The notes beneath the pieces were generated by a model that saw only the letters and a program-made list of their open reading frames with translations, did not search any database and was not told the DNA's origin. A stretch of 36,360 nucleotides of DNA, taken from the IMG/VR virus record IMGVR_UViG_3300023093_000005, positions 1 through 36,360 of that record; one strand, 5' to 3'. Within the stretch, counting starts at the first letter, position 1. Each line of letters opens with the position of its first letter. This DNA comes from a virus. Shown one piece after another: positions 7,583-33,806 of this stretch. The translations under genes were made by a program, and so were the position numbers.

Positions 7583-7626
7583 ATTGGTGCCTTTCCCTTA
7601 TGTTGCTAGCTTTGCGATATAAGAGA

Positions 7627-7651
7627 GGCGCACATTCGTGCGGTGTGCGCC
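7627..7651. promoter_or_regulatory. Leader hairpin, 8-bp GC-rich stem
   Basis: GGCGCACA at 7627-7634 and TGTGCGCC at 7644-7651 form a perfect 8-bp stem with a 9-nt loop, in the untranslated leader of the minus-strand operon starting at 7582. No T-run follows, so it looks like a processing or attenuation element and not a simple terminator. Confidence 0.5.
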
Positions 7652-7731
7652 AATACTGTGTAGATAAATAAGATTCACCTAAAGTACTAGGCAGTAATTA
7701 AATACGCCTCTCACATAACACAAGGAGATTT

Positions 7732-7745
7732 GGTGACTTGTCACC
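7732..7745. promoter_or_regulatory. Operator-like palindrome GGTGACttGTCACC
   Basis: This perfect 6+2+6 palindrome lies about 8-21 nt downstream of the predicted start point of the minus promoter (7760-7788) and about 70-85 nt from the divergent plus promoter. Its position and symmetry are those of a repressor operator. No repressor gene has been identified by homology; the adjacent plus-strand genes are candidates. Confidence 0.5.
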
Positions 7746-7759
7746 TATACAGTCTCTAC

Positions 7760-7788
7760 AGTATAGCACTTATGCTAGTAAATGTCCA
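7760..7788 (-). promoter_or_regulatory. Sigma70-type promoter for packaging operon
   Basis: On the minus strand TGGACA (7788-7783) and TATACT (7765-7760) are separated by exactly 17 nt, with a TG-extended -10 (TGCTATACT). This is the best-formed -35/-10 pair among the minus-strand promoters in the window. It would start transcription near 7753, ahead of a roughly 170-nt leader. Confidence 0.65.
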
Positions 7789-7811
7789 GCTAGATACCTC
7801 CGTTACGCTCG

Positions 7812-7826
7812 TGCTAGACTAGGTAT
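7812..7826 (+). promoter_or_regulatory. Extended -10 for leaderless plus-strand transcript
   Basis: TGCTAGACT at 7812-7820 is an extended -10 box lying 6 nt before the ATG at 7827. The start point would therefore be at or next to the A of the start codon, giving a leaderless mRNA. No convincing -35 is seen. It faces away from the minus promoter across about 25 nt. Confidence 0.45.
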
Positions 7827-8039
7827 ATGATTCCCAAGCTGAACATCACACTCTACGATGAACTGGATAGAGCGATTAAAGGTAGTGCCCTTGGTAACCT
7901 CACAGACATAAACAGGTACAGGCAAGATTTAGAGAACTTAATACCATTCTCCCGAGCTGTCTTAGACGGCTCTAAGGGCAGAGTTGAGGTCACTTCTGTT
8001 GAGCAGTTACGCGAAGAGCTTTGGAAGTACTATAGCTAA
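7827..8039 (+). CDS. Plus-strand small protein, possible regulator, 70 aa
   Basis: This is one of only three plus-strand genes. The protein (MIPKLNITLYDELDRAIKGSALG...) starts with a ribbon-like strand and a helix and ends acidic/aromatic (EQLREELWKYYS). The first 20 residues vaguely resemble a ribbon-helix-helix protein, but I cannot confirm it. There is no Shine-Dalgarno upstream, in line with leaderless translation from the -10 at 7812. The stop overlaps the next ATG (TAATG). The divergent arrangement around an operator-like palindrome makes a role in the lysis/lysogeny decision attractive but unproven. Confidence 0.6.
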   Translation: MIPKLNITLYDELDRAIKGSALGNLTDINRYRQDLENLIPFSRAVLDGSKGRVEVTSVEQLREELWKYYS

Positions 8040-8140
8040 TGTCAGACTACGGCCCCAGAACACAGACAAACAAGTACTGTAACTACCATGAGTGTAAGCG
8101 TCCTTGTCACCTGTGTGTTTATATGGGGCGTACTGTTTAA
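8039..8140 (+). CDS. 33-aa Cys-rich mini zinc protein, plus strand
   Basis: The ATG shares its A with the stop of the preceding gene (TAATG). The protein contains YCNYHECKRPCHLCVYMGR, a dense CxxxHxCxxxCHxxC cluster with enough ligands for one zinc. It ends by overlapping the convergent minus gene by 4 nt. The two plus genes form a mini-operon opposed to the long minus operon. Confidence 0.55.
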   Translation: MSDYGPRTQTNKYCNYHECKRPCHLCVYMGRTV

Positions 8141-8334
8141 TTATCCAAGCCTGATGCACGTTTAGCAGCTTCTAATGCTACCGTAGTGGCACTCTCGTCA
8201 CTGAGCATATTTAATACACTGGGTAACTCTTTCTCGAAGCGGTCATACCACATATCACCCGTTAAGACAGCCTTACCCTTAATAGTAACAACTTCGCCAG
8301 CTATCAGCTTATCTAACAATTCTTCTGCACTCAT
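8137..8334 (-). CDS. Hypothetical protein, 65 aa
   Basis: This is a helical acidic protein (MSAEELLDKLIAGEVVTIKGKAVLTGD...). The ATG at 8334 overlaps the HNH gene's TGA (ATGA), which I prefer over the ATG four codons upstream. It is the last gene of the long accessory operon and converges with the plus-strand pair. The function is unknown. Confidence 0.6.
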   Translation of the reverse strand: MSAEELLDKLIAGEVVTIKGKAVLTGDMWYDRFEKELPSVLNMLSDESATTVALEAAKRASGLDN

Positions 8335-8813
8335 ACATGACTCCAACTTCTACCATGTTTAATATCATAAATACGGCCATGCGCTACACCGTACTCTTTG
8401 GCTAGTGATGTGCCGGTGTCACCAGCTAGTAGACGGCGCTTAATCTCAGTGACAATAGCCTCGGTAAGTTTAGCGTTACAGTTTAATGAACCGTGTAATT
8501 TATAGTGCTTATCACGGTAATAGTGCTTCATGTTACCGCTTTGTGTTGTCCACTCTAGGTTAGATATAGCGTTGTTAGTTTTATTCTCATCTAAATGATT
8601 GACGACATTACAACCGTCGGGCTTGTCAAGATATGCTGTAGCTACAAGTCTATGGACTAAGTAACGATGTCCGCCAACTTGAATGTACGGGTAACCCTTG
8701 TTGGTAAGTTGGACACTAGCAAGTTTAAAGTTGCTCTGGTACTGCCAGTATACGTTACCCAGCTCATCGGCAAACCACTGTGTAATACCAGTTCCTATAT
8801 TAAGCGGTTTCAT
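8331..8813 (-). CDS. Free-standing HNH endonuclease
   Basis: This 160-aa protein has an HNH_3-type core: VHRLVATAYLDKPDGCNVVNHLDENKTNNAISNLEWTT-like segments give the H...N...H/N pattern (LVHRLVA, VVNHLDENKTNN, NLEWTTQSGN). The C-terminal helix-turn-helix (LTEAIVTEIKRRLLAG, then SLAKEYGVAHGRIYDIKHGRSW) would bind DNA. The arrangement is that of phage homing endonucleases. No interrupted gene flanks it, so it looks free-standing. It is embedded between two small genes through short overlaps. Confidence 0.85.
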   Translation of the reverse strand: MKPLNIGTGITQWFADELGNVYWQYQSNFKLASVQLTNKGYPYIQVGGHRYLVHRLVATAYLDKPDGCNVVNHLDENKTNNAISNLEWTTQSGNMKHYYRDKHYKLHGSLNCNAKLTEAIVTEIKRRLLAGDTGTSLAKEYGVAHGRIYDIKHGRSWSHV

Positions 8814-13327: not shown

Positions 13328-13573
13328 TTATAGTCCGATTCCTTTTTTACAGTCGGTACAGATAACGATAAAACCAAAGGGTACGGTATTTTCGTGCTTA
13401 CACTTAGTGGCTGCAACACGACTGTTTATGAAGTTCTGTAACGCTTCTTGGGGCGTCTTTCCGAATGCTGCATCGCTCTCTTGTAGGTTGATAAAGTCGC
13501 TGTAGTGAGCAACCCAGCTATCTCCGTCACGCTTAAGTACATAATCTAGTGTCTTGGTTGGTGCTTGTGTCAT
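13328..13573 (-). CDS. HicB-like fold or zinc protein, 81 aa
   Basis: The N-terminal half (LDYVLKRDGDSWVAHYSDFINLQESDAAFGKTPQEALQNFI-type pattern) follows the HicB/partial-RNase H order: strand, strand with D, gap, strand, then a helix TPQEALQNFI. A C-terminal ribbon, CKHENTVPFGFIVICTDCKKG, is appended. GGAGG lies 8 nt before the ATG at 13573. No HicA toxin is seen beside it, so this is not called a toxin-antitoxin pair. It lies directly downstream of the large structured RNA region. Confidence 0.55.
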   Translation of the reverse strand: MTQAPTKTLDYVLKRDGDSWVAHYSDFINLQESDAAFGKTPQEALQNFINSRVAATKCKHENTVPFGFIVICTDCKKGIGL

Positions 13574-13589
13574 GTTGATGACCTCCATA

Positions 13590-14366
13590 ATTTAATTAAA
13601 CTTCCATGCGAACGTACTGCTTGTCGTACGCTAGCCCCCTAATATTCCCCATAGAGCTGGTAGTAATGGACTCCCCCGCAAAGCTTCTACGCCTATACGT
13701 TTTAGAACTACCAGACTCATAGTGTTAATAGCTTCATCGTTAGCCATCGCTGACTGGGCTTTCTTTACACTACTAACATGCTGGCTGAACCTGCATATGC
13801 ATTTAACATAGCCTTTGAGCGCTTAACTCGCGCCCTGCTTTGCACCAGCATGTACTAAACAAGACCATAGTGAGAGCCGACCAGTAAGCGCTGTGCAACG
13901 TATGGTCGGTAGGCTAGTCGTTTACCAGCACACTTGATTCTTCACCTGCTTCTCCCACTAAAGGCTGTTTAGTATTGATTAACTAGCCATAGCCAGCGGC
14001 AAGGATGAGCAACTACCTTTTCAACTCATCTAACGGGGCAATCGTAATAGGCATGTTCCCGTTTGTCGCGCTAGCAACGTCTCACCGCCAGCTATGGTTC
14101 TAGTACCGCACTATGATTGACCCTTGAAAACCACACTATCGTCATGCAATAGGGGTGGGTTACAAGTCGGTACCAGACTAAGCTAGTTAATCTCCTAATG
14201 AATCAGGTAGCCGACAACAGTGAGCCGTTCGCATCTCACCCGGTCACAAACGCCACTAGGACGAATTACCGTAGTCAGGACTCTCACCAACGAAGTATTT
14301 CTATTGCCAGCGAACTGACTCATTAGTATTTGAATTGTGAATGTGCTTTGACGTTGCAAGGAACAT
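13590..14366 (-). ncRNA. Candidate large structured RNA 1
   Basis: About 775 nt without a credible gene are crowded with long-range inverted repeats. Stems: 13654-13664 with 13707-13718 (11 bp, one bulge); ACATGCTGG 13776-13784 with CCAGCATGT 13845-13853; CCGACCA 13877-13883 with TGGTCGG 13903-13909; ACTAGCCATAGC 13982-13993 with 14091-14104 (12 bp, 2-nt bulge), enclosing GATGAG/CTCATC (14004-14030) and AACGGG/CCCGTT (14032-14063); and GTCGG+TACC 14166-14174 with 14206-14215. CTAATGA inside that last loop (14195-14201) can pair with TCATTAG at 14320-14326, a possible pseudoknot. The minus strand is assumed because both flanking genes are on it. The size and setting recall GOLLD or ROOL RNAs of phages; membership is not shown. 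Confidence 0.6.
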
Positions 14367-14561
14367 TTATAGTGCCTCCAACTCCTTAAATTTAATTTCC
14401 ATATCTTCCGTCTTCCCGTAGTCGATTGCTACCACCTTTTTACATGCACACTGCCGAGTTATGAATGCCATATCTCCCGGTGTGCCAGGATAGTTTTTGT
14501 GTACTCGCTTTATTGGGAACAGCTTTAGTTCTTTATATACATGTTCGTGCATGTCTGTCAT
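14367..14561 (-). CDS. Small zinc-ribbon-like protein, 64 aa
   Basis: HEHVYKELKLF at the N-terminus and ITRQCACKKVVAIDYG further on give an H-x-H ... CxC ligand set with about 35 residues between, the longer version of the local module. The start is TAATG-coupled to the membrane peptide gene. It is the last gene before structured RNA 1. Confidence 0.6.
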   Translation of the reverse strand: MTDMHEHVYKELKLFPIKRVHKNYPGTPGDMAFITRQCACKKVVAIDYGKTEDMEIKFKELEAL

Positions 14562-16536: not shown

Positions 16537-17160
16537 CTATTTATAGTTTTTTACAAATTCAACCTGATTATCTACTTCGGCCAAAAAGCTGATTACTTCT
16601 TCTTCAAGTTCCGCAATATACACATCGTCACGGTCAACGTGAATGATTATCTTTTGTGCGTTTTCTGGCATACGTGGGTCGTAGCTAACGAAGGAACTCC
16701 AAAGTCGGTCTGTTATCCATAGTTGGCCTTGAACCTGCGCCCAGTACTGGTATGGAATTTTGCCTTTCATCAGTGTTTCAATGTGTGTAGCAGTGTTAGG
16801 GCATTTAATCTCTAAGCAGCCATCATCACTTATCAGCCCGTCAGGACTTGCTCCTGCCATGATTTCGTCGTGCATCCAAAAGCCTGTCTCATCGACAGTG
16901 ACATTCATAGCAAGTTCGTATTCAAGTCTCGCCAGAGGTTCGTTATCTATCCCCCACTGCATAGCTGTTGTAGTGTATAGCTCGTTACGTTGGCCTGTGA
17001 GTCGTTCCGCTACTAACTCAGCGGCATAGTTCTTACGACTCGCTGAGTAGCCTGAACGGGTCTTAGCCATGATGTCACCGAATCTACTGGCTGATGCTCG
17101 GCCTAGCCGTCCGGCGAACCATTCTGGCGTCCGTTGTTCAGCTTTAAGCAGGGTTGCCAT
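16537..17160 (-). CDS. YqaJ/lambda-exonuclease-type recombinase nuclease
   Basis: This 207-aa protein shows the YqaJ family signatures: a start QRTPEWFAGRLGRASASRFG, then WGIDNEPLARLEYE, the catalytic GASPDGLISDDGCLEIKCP (D...ExK), and QVQGQLWITD. It would degrade one strand of double-stranded ends, exposing the single strand for the RecT annealing protein encoded directly upstream (16-nt overlap). Length and motif order are complete, so it should be active. Confidence 0.92.
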   Translation of the reverse strand: MATLLKAEQRTPEWFAGRLGRASASRFGDIMAKTRSGYSASRKNYAAELVAERLTGQRNELYTTTAMQWGIDNEPLARLEYELAMNVTVDETGFWMHDEIMAGASPDGLISDDGCLEIKCPNTATHIETLMKGKIPYQYWAQVQGQLWITDRLWSSFVSYDPRMPENAQKIIIHVDRDDVYIAELEEEVISFLAEVDNQVEFVKNYK

Positions 17161-17941
17161 TTTTTAGCTCCTGTATTCGCTTTGTAATTAGTGGTGTAAC
17201 TGCGCGTTTCTGTGCGGGGTCTAAACCGCTAAGTAAACCAATAAGCTCATTACGGCTTTTGGCTTCACTGATGTTGTACGCTAATTCGTCTGAGTTCATC
17301 TCGTATTGCTCACCAACGAGCCCAAAATCTTCGTTATCATTCTTATCAATATCTTCGACAATATCGTTAAAGTGGCGTTTACATGCGCGTTTAAGGACTG
17401 ATTTAAGCCAAAACTCGGATTCCCATGATGTCCATAGGTATTTTTGCTTACTGCCGTCCTTCATGGCTTCAAAGTCTGAACGGTTTAATGTTTCAACAAA
17501 TTCACCGCGCTTATTCTTAATGACAGCGTATGCGCCAACTATTGGCTTATTGCCAAATGGGTCGCTAATAGTGTGCGAGTAGACAATACTGCCAGACTCT
17601 TTTGCTAAATTAAATGTGTCCCCTTCGCGTACAATCTGCATATCAATCTCTGTTTCAGGGTAGACACGTAGAACAGTGTTCTTGTAGCCGTGGTAAGTGA
17701 CCATCGCCATGTTATTACCGGCAATCACCACATTTACACCATCTATGGTTAGACCCATTCGCCAAAATTTGAGTGCCATACTGAGCAAGGATTTGTCGGT
17801 ATTGTTTGTTACCGGCTTCTTATCTTTGTCCGATTCTTTGTGACGTTCGCCATTAACATAGTTAAGGAACTTCTCAACTTCAATCGCTGGCATCCCGCGT
17901 TCTATGAGCTGCTCTTTTAACGAAGTTTCTTCTTTTTCCAT
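17144..17941 (-). CDS. recT: RecT-family single-strand annealing protein
   Basis: This 265-aa protein has the RecT core: LLSMALKFWRMGLTIDGVNV, YHGYKNTVLRVYPE, IVGAYAVIKNKRGEF and the helix WESEFWLKSVLKRACKRHF, followed by the usual acidic linker and C-terminal helices. It anneals complementary strands during recombination-dependent replication and repair. The pairing with the YqaJ nuclease is the standard two-gene recombination system. AAGGA lies 7 nt before the ATG. Confidence 0.92.
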   Translation of the reverse strand: MEKEETSLKEQLIERGMPAIEVEKFLNYVNGERHKESDKDKKPVTNNTDKSLLSMALKFWRMGLTIDGVNVVIAGNNMAMVTYHGYKNTVLRVYPETEIDMQIVREGDTFNLAKESGSIVYSHTISDPFGNKPIVGAYAVIKNKRGEFVETLNRSDFEAMKDGSKQKYLWTSWESEFWLKSVLKRACKRHFNDIVEDIDKNDNEDFGLVGEQYEMNSDELAYNISEAKSRNELIGLLSGLDPAQKRAVTPLITKRIQELKNGNPA

Positions 17942-18209: not shown

Positions 18210-18232
18210 GATGGCCTCCCACATTTAATTGG

Positions 18233-18676
18233 ACTAACCAATCATCTATGCCCCTAAGCTGTGCCGATATTGTGTACGCGTATCTCCGTCGGTCTGTTAA
18301 ATTCATGTGCAGCAGTATGTAGCACATGAATCGCGGCTTCCCTCAACTTAGAGACATGAATGATTGGTTAGTGGTTGATATTGTTAGTCAGTCCAAAGTA
18401 CGTTCAGACTAGATCGCCTGACGTCAATTCCATAGCCTCTAGCACTAGAACGCACATTGGGCTGATTAACTGGTGTAGAGCGCATGTTGCATGGCAACAA
18501 TAGCCGGAGTTCCCTGGATAAGTCACCGGCTCAATACTTACCCATGCTAGTGATGGTTATCAGCCATCTTTCACCTACCTACTCCGTGGGGTTCACGGAC
18601 CCGTAACCTACTTGTTACTAGCATTGATGTGGGTTTTCTCGTCCTCTCGATTGCTACCTGCAACATGCGCTCTACA
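18233..18676 (-). ncRNA. Candidate large structured RNA 2
   Basis: The region is gene-free and contains exceptionally long perfect stems. Domain A: ACTAACCAATCAT 18233-18245 pairs with 18360-18372 (13 bp), enclosing ATTCATGTGC 18301-18310 with 18322-18331 (10 bp), and 18254-18261 with 18344-18351. The last pairing is complete only on the minus strand, where a G-U replaces what would be a C-A mismatch, which favours minus-strand transcription. Domain B: 18474-18490 pairs with 18660-18676 (17 bp), enclosing AGCCGG/CCGGCT (18502-18531), ATGCTAGT/ACTAGCAT (18544-18624), GATGG/CCATC and TCCGTG/CACGGA hairpins. No intron-encoded protein is present. The function is unknown. Confidence 0.62.
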
Positions 18677-18681
18677 TTTTG

Positions 18682-19364: not shown

Positions 19365-19389
19365 AATCCTAAACATTATGTCTAGGATT
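19365..19389 (-). terminator. Rho-independent terminator after integrase
   Basis: AATCCTA (19365-19371) and TAGGATT (19383-19389) form a 7-bp stem which, read on the minus strand, is followed by a run of six T residues (19366-19361). It would end transcription from the integrase promoter after it has crossed attP. Confidence 0.75.
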
Positions 19390-19413
19390 GCTGATTTACT
19401 GATTGGATAACTG

Positions 19414-19463
19414 TGGAGCCGCCTGTGGGATTTGAACCCACGACCTCATCCTTACCATGGATG
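19414..19463 (-). other. attP core: 3' half of tRNA-Thr(GGT)
   Basis: Read on the minus strand, 19463-19414 gives an anticodon stem (CATCC/GGATG) with loop ATGGTAA (anticodon GGT, Thr), a variable loop, a perfect T arm (GTGGG/CCCAC around TTCAAAT), the 3' acceptor strand and an encoded CCA. Upstream, the D arm and the 5' acceptor strand are absent, so it is a fragment and not a gene. Phages that integrate into tRNA genes carry such a 3' piece so that the host gene is restored. The integrase gene lies 132 nt away. Confidence 0.85.
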
Positions 19464-19594
19464 TGATTGGCCCCTAGAGTTTTCTAAGGAGTAAATCTAA
19501 TTCTAGACTATATGTCTTTTGCGAATTAGGTTGTGAATGAACTATTTAGATAATAGCAAACTGCTGGCGTTTTGTCAATAGGCTTATGCAAAGA

Positions 19595-20579: not shown

Positions 20580-21077
20580 GTAACTAGTCTCATGCAAGTA
20601 CATTCTCGTTTATTTAATGAAAAGTTAATGAAATCTTCTGTATACACGCTTAAAAAGCCTTTAGTTTTGAATAGCTACCGCTACAAGGCTACCTAACAAA
20701 TGCGCTGGCTCTGTGATGTATTAGTTTTTCTCGATTTATTAAATATATCAGTTACGACGTATTAAGAGAGTTAACATATCACTCATTAGTGCTAGTGTGG
20801 GGTTGCCTTTATAGAATATGTACATCTCAAATACATCTATAGTGGTGGCAACACCGCAATTTGTTAAGTAACCAGAGGTACCTGTTTTACTTGTTTACCC
20901 TCTCTTATAACAAGTAACGTCATCACGTCACCAGTCCGTATTACAGGCCATACGGCTAGCCATGCTACTTTGTGCTCACTTATGTGAATGCCGGGAAAGT
21001 CCGACCGGGTTCTTTTAAGCGCCCCTTTCAGTAGTAGTCACTGTGCCTACGCTATCCGAGAATGATAATCTGCTTGA
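20580..21077. other. Gene-free region with hairpins, possible origin or regulatory RNA
   Basis: No credible gene lies between the lysis-block terminator and the integrase promoter. An AT-rich part (about 20590-20790) holds the direct repeat TTAATGAAA twice near 20615-20635. Next comes a long hairpin: GTTGCC 20802-20807 with GGCAAC 20847-20852, extended by TATAGA/TCTATA and ATGTA/TACAT. Then TTACTTGTT 20887-20895 pairs with AACAAGTAA 20909-20917, and CCGTAT 20936-20941 with ATACGG 20950-20955. It could be a replication origin, an integrase control region or a third RNA; the sequence alone does not decide. Confidence 0.45.
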
Positions 21078-21119
21078 CATGTAAAAAGCTTACCTCGTTA
21101 AAAGTAAGCTTTTGCCATG
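21078..21119. terminator. Strong terminator of the lysis operon
   Basis: AAAAGCTTAC (21084-21093) and GTAAGCTTTT (21104-21113) form a perfect 10-bp stem with a 10-nt loop, flanked by CATG on both sides. In the minus direction the stem ends in a T-rich tract (CTTTTTAC). The A and T tracts on both sides would let it work in both directions. Confidence 0.75.
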
Positions 21120-21184
21120 ACACATAGCTCCAGCCTCTCGGTGGAACCATGATCTATATCTGCAAGACTCTCATTGTAACACAT

Positions 21185-21283
21185 TTACTCGTCAGATTCA
21201 AGAACAGCTTCAACTGCAATAGTTGCAAGCTCACGAGAAAGGGCACCATTTATGAATCTCTCCTGTTCGTCCATGCACTCCAT
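21185..21283 (-). CDS. Hypothetical helical peptide, 32 aa
   Basis: The ATG follows the preceding TAA by one base. The peptide (MECMDEQERFINGALSRELA...) is acidic and helical and the last ORF before the lysis terminator. The evidence is spacing only. Confidence 0.35.
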   Translation of the reverse strand: MECMDEQERFINGALSRELATIAVEAVLESDE

Positions 21284-27627: not shown

Positions 27628-30600
27628 CTACTTTACGCGTACCTTTGGATTGGTTGATATTGTTTTAATTTTTGTTCCACCTTTTCGCTTTCTAGTAGAC
27701 ACCTTATAGCTGCCAAAGTGACGTCCTGCATCAATCGCAACGTTCTTTAGCCTAGGCATTGAAGCTTCCGCGGTGAGTATTTTGGCTTGTAGCGATTTGC
27801 CACCACCGCCACCACCAGAACCTCCACTGCTACCGTCAAGTTTTGAATACTTGTATATACCGGCGTCTACATTTGCTGCATCTAAGGCTTGAAGTTCAGC
27901 ATATTGCTCATCAGTGATTTTGCTATTACTTAAGAAGTCATCGATTTTCTTTTCGCTCATACCCATGATATCGACAGCATCTTTACTGAACTTAGATTGT
28001 ACTTCGGCTTTGTATAGCTTGTCTTGTAACTGATAGTCGTCAATTTGGCTAATCTTACCATTAGCTTTATCGAGTTGATATTGTTGGTCCATGGTTTGAA
28101 ATATACCGTATGGGCTCTCTTTGAACATCTTGTAATCTTGGGAGGTAGTAGCACCGGCCTGTTTAGCTAATAGGTAAGGAAGAAGATTACGCTTAGCTGT
28201 ATATAGTTCATCTGCTGTGGCATTGCCTGATTTTTGCTTATCCTCTAACTGGGCTGTCTTTAACTTAAATGTACTGTCAAAGTCGGCGTCAAACTTATTC
28301 TTACCTGCTGGGGTTAGACGATCGTATCGGTTTAGTGTTCTAGCTGATTCTTGGCTTAATCCAGGGCTGTGTAGACTAGGGGCTTTGAACGCTGTTTTAA
28401 TAGTTTCTTGTTGGTCGTAGAGCGCACGAGCGGCAGGGTCACTTGCTGCTAAAGCTTTTTGGTCACTTGCGCTTAGGGCTAGGAACTTCTTTGCCTCTGG
28501 ACTAGTCATAGTCACTTTAACTGCATCTGATGCAGTTTGTCTTGGACTTGTAGTAACACCACTTAGTGTTTGTGGTGCCGTGTTACCTGCCTCAGCATCC
28601 GCTTGTTTCTTGAAAGGTAATACCCTGTTTTTAATTGGTGTACCAACTATAGGTATTTGCTGGAGTGCAAAACGTGCTGCAGGAGTAGCATCTGTATATT
28701 GTTCACCGGAATTGTTAAGTGCTAATTTGCCGGTTAAGTCGTCAGGAGTGTTCTTTCTTTGACTAAGTTCCGACGCTGCTCCTATTCCCTGTATAACCGT
28801 ACCTGCTGTAGGCCCGAAGACTGTACCTGCCGACATGCTTACACGCCTGTCCGTCGGTATATACTTGCTGCCTACAGGATTAAGACCTTGATACATATCA
28901 AATATCAGTCCAAAACCACCTATTTTACTTGCTGCAGCTAGTGCTTCCTTAGTGTTTATAGCTGCACCGTTATCTTCTCCGGGGCGTCCGTCAATAGCAC
29001 GACGAGTTTCATAGAGCGCATAGCCTACCGGTAGTGCTGCCATGAAGCGTGCCAAAGGCTTAAAGTCACCATTCTTAAACGCGGGCTTCAGGATTTCATT
29101 ACTTACGAATTTGCTTTGCGCGTAAGAGAACGTTCTGAACTGACTGACTAGTTTACCTCCGGGGCTATCCGCCCATCCGGGTAAATCTTGCGGGTCTACT
29201 TTGAACTGTGTCTTTTCTACGACCTTACGGGCAGCTTGTACTTGCTGAGCATCAGAAAGTGTTCTCCCCTTTATTTCTCCTGTTACACCTAGTTTACGTA
29301 ACGTTGCTTCATCACCATTTTGGGCTAATCGTAGAGCATAATCCCTACCGGCCGTGGCAGACAGTGAGCGGTTAAACTTTTCGACTTGGCTAAAGCCCGG
29401 TGCAGTAATCTTATTAAGAGCATTACCAAGCACCTTAGAGCTAAATGATTTGTATCCTTGTTGTGAGCGCATATCACTTAAGAGTGCATCGGAAATGACA
29501 CCTGTATCCGCTACGAAGTCTTTTGTCTTTTGATCGAACTGCTTAGCTGCTGCAGCTAATGTGCGTAGGTGCCCGGTCACAATACCTGTGTTTACGCTTT
29601 GGGATACGTTGGTTAGCGCTCCTAGACCCAATCGCGTAGTGGTCGTGTATTTTCGAACATTTCCAAGAGCATTATCAAACTTTGGGTTATATTTTTTAGC
29701 GCCAACTGCGACGTCAAATGCTTCTTTTGCAGCTTCATGGTCCCCGCCCTCATGCCCTATTTGCGTTAGGAGTTTCAAAGCTTTTTCGTCTTTCGCCCCA
29801 AAGGTTTCTGTGTGAGCGATACGTTTAGCCGAACCGTTTAAATACCCGATAAGACTATTAGGAGACTTATCATAAAAAGGTAGGTCAATTGTACGCGATG
29901 CTTCTAGGTTGCCGAACTCACGGTTGCGCGATACGCTCTTAGCATAATCCAGTAGTTTTCTCGCCTCTTGTTCGTTAGGAGCTTGTCCTGTCTCTATTAA
30001 ATGATTGATTGATTTGTTGTACATGTTTTGGTCTTTAAAGATTTGGTCGTAATCGTTAAAGTGTGGATAGTACTGAGGCCCTAAATCACCTACTTCAAGA
30101 CCCGCATTTACTGCACGATTACGTACTTCAGGGTGGAATGCTTGCCATTCCTTAATTGCTTGTTCAACCTTAGCATTGTTTGGCTTAGCCAAGCCTTGAG
30201 TCGCTTCTACGAAGTTTTCAAAGTCTCCACCACTTCGCAGTCTGTTCTTGTCGCTACGTGCTAGTTTAGAAACGGTTGGCAGTTTCTTCTGCCAATCACC
30301 AAGTGTTATCTCTTTATTGTCACGCGCACCTTGGAGCATTGTAGCTAATTGCTTGCCGCTTTCACCTTGGCGTTCAATTATTGAACGTGTGGAGCGAAGA
30401 GCCTTGTCTATATTGCTTACTTGGGTTGTGTTATAAATAGGTAATGGATTTGATATTTTTTGACTTTCCGTGGTCACGACTTTTTGAGCTGGTTGGCGCC
30501 CTTGTGATTTTAGGAGTACCGCTGTATTTTGTGTTTGATTGGTGGTCGAACCGGCAGGAAGCGAAGCATCAGAAGATGCGCGACGATACAGTTCGTCGTA

Positions 30601-33510: not shown

Positions 33511-33516
33511 TTTGCT

Positions 33517-33531
33517 AATATCATTCTCTGA
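33517..33531 (-). repeat. Right 15-bp inverted repeat of moron cassette
   Basis: AATATCATTCTCTGA, the exact reverse complement of 32860-32874, begins 7 nt after the metallopeptidase stop. Outside it lies CTCCGT-like sequence (as ACGGAG at 33540-33545) that also occurs near the left arm, so the original repeat may have been longer. Confidence 0.75.
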
Positions 33532-33587
33532 TTGTTAAAACGGAGTGAGTCTGCCTGTTCCGAAGATGGCTCAACTATCACGGTGAC

Positions 33588-33656
33588 TTATAACGAATGG
33601 CTAACCGTAGTTGCCTGTTCCGCTAGGTCGTCGCTATTTGTTAATAACCCTGACAT
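33588..33656 (-). CDS. Short leader ORF, 22 aa, doubtful
   Basis: An ATG follows the leader hairpin in the same place where complete genes start in the other two modules, and reads MSGLLTNSDDLAEQATTVSHSL before a TAA. It may be a leader peptide or the remnant of a gene start cut off by the moron insertion. The DNA around it contains TGCCTGTTCCG twice, exactly 60 bp apart (33552 and 33612). Confidence 0.3.
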   Translation of the reverse strand: MSGLLTNSDDLAEQATTVSHSL

Positions 33657-33663
33657 ATAAAAA

Positions 33664-33725
33664 GAGGACGCGCATATTGCTCGTCCTCCTATGTTGTAGG
33701 TCAGATTAACTTTTATTATAGCATA
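33664..33725 (-). promoter_or_regulatory. Late promoter with terminator-like leader, virion-core unit
   Basis: The minus strand has TATGCTATAAT (33725-33715), CTGACCTACA, AGGAGG (33690-33685) and a 7-bp hairpin GAGGACG/CGTCCTC (33688-33664) that ends in CTCTTTTTATATG. The Shine-Dalgarno is in the stem and an ATG in the loop. The tail CTCTTTTTATATG is the same as in the fibre leader. The next long minus-strand gene begins about 810 nt further on, beyond the moron. Confidence 0.65.
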
Positions 33726-33751
33726 CTTCTAGTGTTTATCATAATAGCAAA

Positions 33752-33774
33752 GGGGCCGCCCTAATGACGGCCCC
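33752..33774 (-). terminator. Terminator of head operon
   Basis: GGGGCCG (33752-33758) and CGGCCCC (33768-33774) make a perfect 7-bp, all-GC stem with a 9-nt loop, followed on the minus strand by a modest T-containing tract (CTTTGCTATT). It closes the portal-capsid transcription unit just before the next late promoter. Confidence 0.65.
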
Positions 33775-33806
33775 AGTCCTAGTACCTATGCGGTAGACTA
33801 CAGAGA

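What the first reader, a model, noticed from the sequence alone, without database searches (positions are those of the whole stretch)
13590..14366. A 775-nt gene-free block that looks like an ornate phage RNA
At least seven long-range stems of 7-12 bp and one possible pseudoknot fill the region, and no ORF fits. Small phage genomes rarely keep this much non-coding DNA. Size and complexity resemble GOLLD and ROOL, two classes of large phage-borne RNA whose function is poorly understood. It may be a divergent member or a new class.
Basis: partly seen in the sequence, partly recalled or inferred. Interest (0 to 1): 0.85.

Follow-up and report, generated by a model that had tools for sequence, protein, structure and literature searches.

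The report
Large orphan structured RNA in phage
A small temperate phage genome carries a 777-base stretch that codes for no protein and whose transcript would fold far more tightly and elaborately than chance allows, and it belongs to none of the catalogued RNA families tested, so it may be a new large phage RNA, but no relative was found with which to prove it.

Summary
13590-14366 is a gene-free gap (longest ORF 54 aa, TTG start) between two small - strand genes. On that strand it folds at -273 kcal/mol against -232 for dinucleotide shuffles (z -6 to -7), with 11 confident helices of 7 bp or more (shuffles 3.0, sd 1.5) and 8 of 9 bp or more (shuffles 0.85). The + strand is much weaker (z -2.2). 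No other in-phase 777-nt block of the genome has a larger folding excess. The helices form three- and four-way junctions with almost no linkers. The pseudoknot is within chance.

It is not a detectable ROOL or GOLLD: Rfam gives nothing convincing at E<=5, and the ROOL model that finds the known ROOL on pMP118 (E 1e-29) finds nothing here. Relatives of the phage were found (capsids up to 85% identical), but the longer ones lack the block, and pattern, BLAST and covariance-model searches found no homologue. Covariation is therefore untested. A second block, 18225-18681, folds even more strongly (z -10).

Best reading: a real, orphan, large structured RNA made from the leftward operon, probably acting as an RNA scaffold. 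Its function is inferred only. 'Divergent GOLLD/ROOL' is not supported; 'new class' is not excluded.

The parts
13590..14366 (-). RNA A: 777-nt gene-free, highly structured block
   Evidence: z -7.1 on - strand, -2.2 on + strand; 11 confident long helices vs 3.0 in shuffles; largest folding excess of all in-phase 777-nt blocks
14195..14326 (-). RNA A domain I: 12-bp helix 14326-14315/14206-14195 stacked on 11-bp helix 14311-14301/14220-14210, with a loosely folded interior
   Evidence: pair probabilities 0.98-0.99; 4 G-U and 0 A-C opposites in the helix
13977..14192 (-). RNA A domain II: 11-bp closing helix 14192-14182/13987-13977, three-way junction with a 10-bp arm (14177-14168/14108-14099) and a 16-bp helix (14096-14081/14003-13988) that ends in a four-way junction
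   Evidence: pair probabilities 0.97-1.00
13853..13974 (-). RNA A domain III: 9-bp helices 13974-13966/13861-13853 and 13960-13952/13876-13868 leading to a multi-way junction
   Evidence: pair probabilities 0.91-0.99
13777..13852 (-). RNA A domain IV: 9-bp helix 13852-13844/13785-13777 closing a three-way junction
   Evidence: pair probability 0.96
13611..13760 (-). RNA A domain V and 3' hairpin: 8-bp helix 13714-13707/13664-13657; hairpin 13632-13626/13617-13611
   Evidence: pair probabilities 0.85-0.97; outer helices weaker
18225..18681 (-). RNA B: second gene-free block, 457 nt, three successive long hairpin domains (18+9 bp, 20 bp in pieces, 14+14 bp)
   Evidence: MFE -180.5 vs -124.4 +/- 5.4, z -10.3, 0 of 100 shuffles; 17 perfect 9-mer inverted repeat matches vs 0.39 in shuffles; no sequence shared with RNA A beyond chance
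14367..14561 (-). 64-aa orphan ORF immediately upstream of RNA A
   Evidence: no PHROG, Pfam or PADLOC match
13328..13588 (-). 86-aa orphan ORF immediately downstream of RNA A, with its own Shine-Dalgarno
   Evidence: only a weak PHROG of unknown function; no relative in viral contigs
16537..17941 (-). RecE-like exonuclease (16537-17160) and RecT-like annealing protein (17144-17941), in the same leftward run as RNA A and RNA B
   Evidence: PHROG 149 E 4e-45; PHROG 148 E 9e-17
19365..19578 (-). best sigma-70-like promoter (19578-19550, 11/12, extended -10), then attP-like 3' half of a tRNA-Thr(GGT) gene (about 19464-19416) and a terminator-like hairpin (19389-19365)
   Evidence: similarity to annotated tRNA-Thr genes

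Best explanation
The block encodes an orphan large structured noncoding RNA. It is transcribed leftward within the recombination/early operon, either left inside the operon transcript or cut out of it, and folds into five domains joined by tight three- and four-way junctions. It most likely works in trans as an RNA scaffold or platform for a protein, host factor or copies of itself during the lytic cycle, in the general manner of the large phage RNAs. Shown: gene-free, and a predicted fold far beyond chance on the transcribed strand. Inferred: that it is transcribed, that selection acts on the RNA, and everything about its function.
For: MFE z -6 to -7 on the strand on which the flanking genes lie and only -2.2 on the other; 11 helices >=7 bp and 8 of >=9 bp with p>=0.9 vs 3.0 and 0.85 in shuffles, and at most 5 and 2 in 18 other blocks of the same genome; inner junctions with 0-3 nt linkers. 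In three strong helices found with a scoring that treats G-U and A-C alike (RNA positions 41-66/147-172, 268-286/364-382, 407-415/491-499) G-U opposites number 9 and A-C opposites 1, which favours the - strand RNA over a DNA-level palindrome; over all 12 helices found it is 10 to 4, p 0.09. No ORF over 54 aa, no iteron-like or tandem repeats beyond chance, base composition like the rest of the genome.
Against: No homologue and so no covariation. The longer sampled relatives, including one with capsid, transglycosylase and exonuclease genes, lack it. No promoter or terminator of its own. No transcript data. A real ROOL has z of only -1.5, so thermodynamic excess is not a measure of function.
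Confidence: 0.6

Rival explanations
1. Cis-acting structured spacer in the operon messenger: the folds act on their own transcript (processing, stabilising or insulating messages, or antitermination past the tRNA-type terminator at 19389-19365), not as a separate RNA.
For: Lies exactly between a stop codon and the next Shine-Dalgarno, with no promoter or terminator of its own. A terminator-like hairpin does follow the strongest predicted promoter of the operon. RNA B, in the same operon, is similarly placed.
Against: 777 nt with multiway junctions is far larger than known cis elements such as put antiterminators (from general knowledge). RNA A lies about 5 kb beyond the terminator.
Confidence: 0.17
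2. A DNA-level element (replication origin, packaging or recombination site) whose inverted repeats fold as RNA by accident.
For: RNA B has long near-perfect inverted repeats with no G-U over A-C preference (5 vs 4) and also scores on the + strand (z -5.3). Freshwater phages with a related exonuclease carry a repeat-rich gene-free block.
Against: RNA A is much better as - strand RNA than + strand, has no iterons, no AT-rich zone, and has multiway junctions, not simple palindromes. The repeat blocks of the other phages share no sequence with it.
Confidence: 0.1
3. A divergent GOLLD, ROOL or other catalogued large RNA beyond the reach of its Rfam model.
For: Size and ornate multi-domain fold; phage location.
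Against: No meaningful cmscan match at E<=5 with permissive filters; ROOL and GOLLD models give nothing at E<=10 while ROOL is found in pMP118 at 1e-29; no tRNA genes nearby; the folding statistics are unlike the ROOL tested.
Confidence: 0.06
4. No function: a decayed gene, decayed intron or foreign insert that folds well by luck.
For: Absent from the relatives read, flanked by orphan genes.
Against: Decay does not create 8 confident helices of >=9 bp when shuffles give 0.85; no group I or II intron match.
Confidence: 0.07

Closest known systems
ROOL RNA (Rfam RF03087)
   Same: Large gene-free multi-domain RNA of phages and prophages, 500-800 nt scale
   Different: No match to the model, which does find a known ROOL; no tRNA island; far higher folding excess than the ROOL tested (z -7 vs -1.5)
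GOLLD RNA (Rfam RF02032)
   Same: Phage-borne, about 800 nt, ornate (PMC12286853)
   Different: No match to the model; no tRNA genes nearby. GOLLD members share a conserved 3' region (PMC12286853) that the model should find
Long noncoding RNAs of Staphylococcus phage K
   Same: Two long RNAs in one phage, compared by their authors with GOLLD/ROOL on location and abundance (PMC9241854)
   Different: Those are transcribed abundantly and sit near tRNA genes; here transcription is unknown and tRNA genes are absent. Sequences not compared here
put antiterminator RNAs of phage HK022
   Same: Structured RNA in an early phage operon (general knowledge)
   Different: About 70 nt and next to the promoter; RNA A is ten times larger and about 5 kb downstream

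Membership tests
ROOL (RF03087) | Match to the Rfam covariance model | tested here: not met
   No match at E<=10; positive control on pMP118 130 bits, E 1e-29
ROOL (RF03087) | Often near tRNA islands | tested here: not met
   No complete tRNA gene in the window, only an attP tRNA half 5 kb away
ROOL (RF03087) | Homo-octameric nanocage | not testable with these tools
   Needs biochemistry or cryo-EM
GOLLD (RF02032) | Match to the Rfam model, including the conserved 3' region | tested here: not met
   No match at E<=10; two candidates of the loose first look scored and not kept
GOLLD (RF02032) | Location near tRNA genes or arrays | tested here: not met
GOLLD (RF02032) | Transcript rises during lysis | not testable with these tools
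   No transcript data
OLE, HEARO, group I/II introns, any other Rfam 15 family | Match to a covariance model | tested here: not met
   No gathering-level match in the window; only a chance-level snoRNA hit, 16 bits of 45 needed, E 2.7
Conserved structured RNA of any new class | Covariation among homologues | not testable with these tools
   No homologue found
Conserved structured RNA of any new class | Fold beyond composition-matched chance on the transcribed strand | tested here: met

The most novel reading that the evidence does not exclude
The phage makes two new, unrelated classes of large structured RNA (777 and 457 nt) from one operon, RNA A being an unusually rigid junction-rich scaffold unlike any described family.
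Probability: 0.4. Interest if true: 0.8.

Novelty: new variant of a known kind. Interest (0 to 1): 0.55.

Why it matters
Very few classes of large phage RNA are known, and the function of ROOL and GOLLD is open even though their cages are solved. A class outside them, in a 36-kb genome that holds two such blocks, would show that small phages invest in big RNAs more widely. Its predicted stability makes it a good subject for structure determination.

Tried and rejected
Rfam at gathering and E<=5 thresholds; ROOL and GOLLD models directly; RF01998 was a wrong accession for GOLLD and says nothing. BLASTn of RNA A against phages and plasmids, and of RNA B against phages: none. Neighbour proteins as bait in viral contigs: the exonuclease gave 80 loci of other phages, with no RNA A match above chance; the 136-aa and 86-aa neighbours and the integrase gave nothing. 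Capsid bait gave ten clear relatives, with no RNA A as far as their contigs reach. Two sequence patterns from RNA A in viral contigs: 46 hits, nearly all inside ORFs; two (L108, L115) were read and rejected. A single-sequence covariance model of the four-way-junction domain finds only its own locus. A large gene-free block in other freshwater phages first looked like a parallel RNA but is a repeat-rich, operator- or origin-like region unrelated to RNA A. Retron, type III toxin-antitoxin and intron readings were dropped: no reverse transcriptase was seen in the proteins annotated, no tandem repeats in RNA A, no Rfam intron match.

Full report
Setting. The window is a 36,360-base linear virus record from IMG/VR. 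It carries a temperate phage: portal-like protein, terminase, major head protein (PHROG 1357), RecE-like exonuclease, RecT-like annealing protein, tyrosine integrase and transglycosylase, nearly all on the - strand. The integrase gene is followed by the 3' half of a tRNA-Thr(GGT) gene, an attP-like site. The host is not known.

The observation. 13590-14366 has no ORF above 54 aa in any frame. On the - strand it folds at -273.4 kcal/mol, z -7.1; on the + strand z is -2.2. A second set of shuffles gives z -6.1 and shows that what is unusual is the number of long confident helices: 11 of >=7 bp and 8 of >=9 bp, against 3.0 +/- 1.5 and 0.85 +/- 0.79; 18 other blocks of the genome reach at most 5 and 2.

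Anatomy. The confident helices make five domains in a row: a 12 + 11 bp rod with a loose interior; a three-way junction of an 11-bp, a 10-bp and a 16-bp helix, the last ending in a four-way junction; a 9 + 9 bp helix with a multi-way junction; a 9-bp helix closing a three-way junction; and a weaker 3' domain with a hairpin. Linkers at the inner junctions of domain II are 0-4 nt. The closing pairing of the two ends is weak (p about 0.7).

Strand evidence. In a scoring that treats G-U and A-C opposites alike, three of RNA A's strong helices hold 9 G-U to 1 A-C; over all helices found the ratio is 10 to 4, p 0.09. This leans towards selection on the - strand RNA but is not proof; the three helices were picked because the thermodynamic fold also has them. 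For RNA B the ratio is 5 to 4, which does not tell RNA from DNA.

Search for relatives. Nothing in Rfam, INPHARED phages or plasmids. Ten contigs with related capsid genes were found (47-85% identity over full-length matches). The longer ones (25.2, 25.7 and 31.6 kb, all partial) were read for gene content and contain no comparable block and no sequence match to RNA A or RNA B above chance. Two pattern scans of 2.9 million viral contigs and a covariance model of the domain-II junction over 620 kb of loci found only chance hits. Such exact-pattern scans miss diverged relatives, and metagenomes could not be scanned, so absence is not shown.

Membership. The ROOL and GOLLD models do not match. 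The ROOL model works in this set-up: it finds the known ROOL of plasmid pMP118 at 1e-29. That ROOL has a folding z of only -1.5, so RNA A's stability is unlike it, and a high z is not a mark of membership. GOLLD and ROOL often lie near tRNA islands (PMC12286853); there is none here.

Mechanism. Both blocks lie in one leftward run of genes with the recombination proteins. The best promoter match of the region (19578-19550) points into this run, but a tRNA half and a terminator-like hairpin lie between; integration at the tRNA would cut the promoter off from the operon (inference). I think it most likely that the RNA acts in trans as a scaffold in the lytic phase; nothing here shows it. The main rival is a cis-acting element of the operon message.

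Verdict. Real feature, correctly spotted, probably an RNA, not a known family, without the comparative evidence that would make it a class.

Noticed in passing
window 18225-18681 (- strand): A second gene-free block, 457 nt, folds at -180.5 kcal/mol (z -10.3) into three long hairpin domains; no Rfam or phage match and no relation to the 777-nt block.
   Followed up: partly
window 19365-19578: Strong promoter-like site, then the 3' half of a tRNA-Thr(GGT) (attP) and a terminator-like hairpin, in front of the recombination operon; integration would separate promoter from operon.
   Followed up: partly
window 21201-21090 (- strand): Promoter-like site followed about 80 nt later by a hairpin and T-run (AAAGCTTACTTTTAACGAGGTAAGCTTTTT): possible small RNA. 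The 20851-21250 stretch folds with z -4.6 on the - strand.
   Followed up: no
L073 1865-2617, L062 774-1378, L040 1514-2397, L031 2153-2677 and others: Freshwater phages with a related exonuclease share a homologous gene-free block of about 500-880 nt with repeats (AGTAAGCACTAACTAACA; AATGAGAATCATTC): operator- or origin-like.
   Followed up: partly
window 33511-33806: Intergenic stretch with strong terminator-like hairpins (a 200-nt window has z -7.4 on the - strand) between genes that face each other.
   Followed up: no
G006 28381-28611 and 29448-30572: A phage with a 71% identical capsid has a structured short gap (z -6.9) and a 1,125-nt gene-free stretch (z -2.5) after its terminase-side genes.
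   Followed up: no
window 8331-8813: HNH endonuclease ORF (Pfam HNH_3, E 2.5e-8) next to a 748-nt gap (7583-8330) that has no unusual fold (z -1.5).
   Followed up: no
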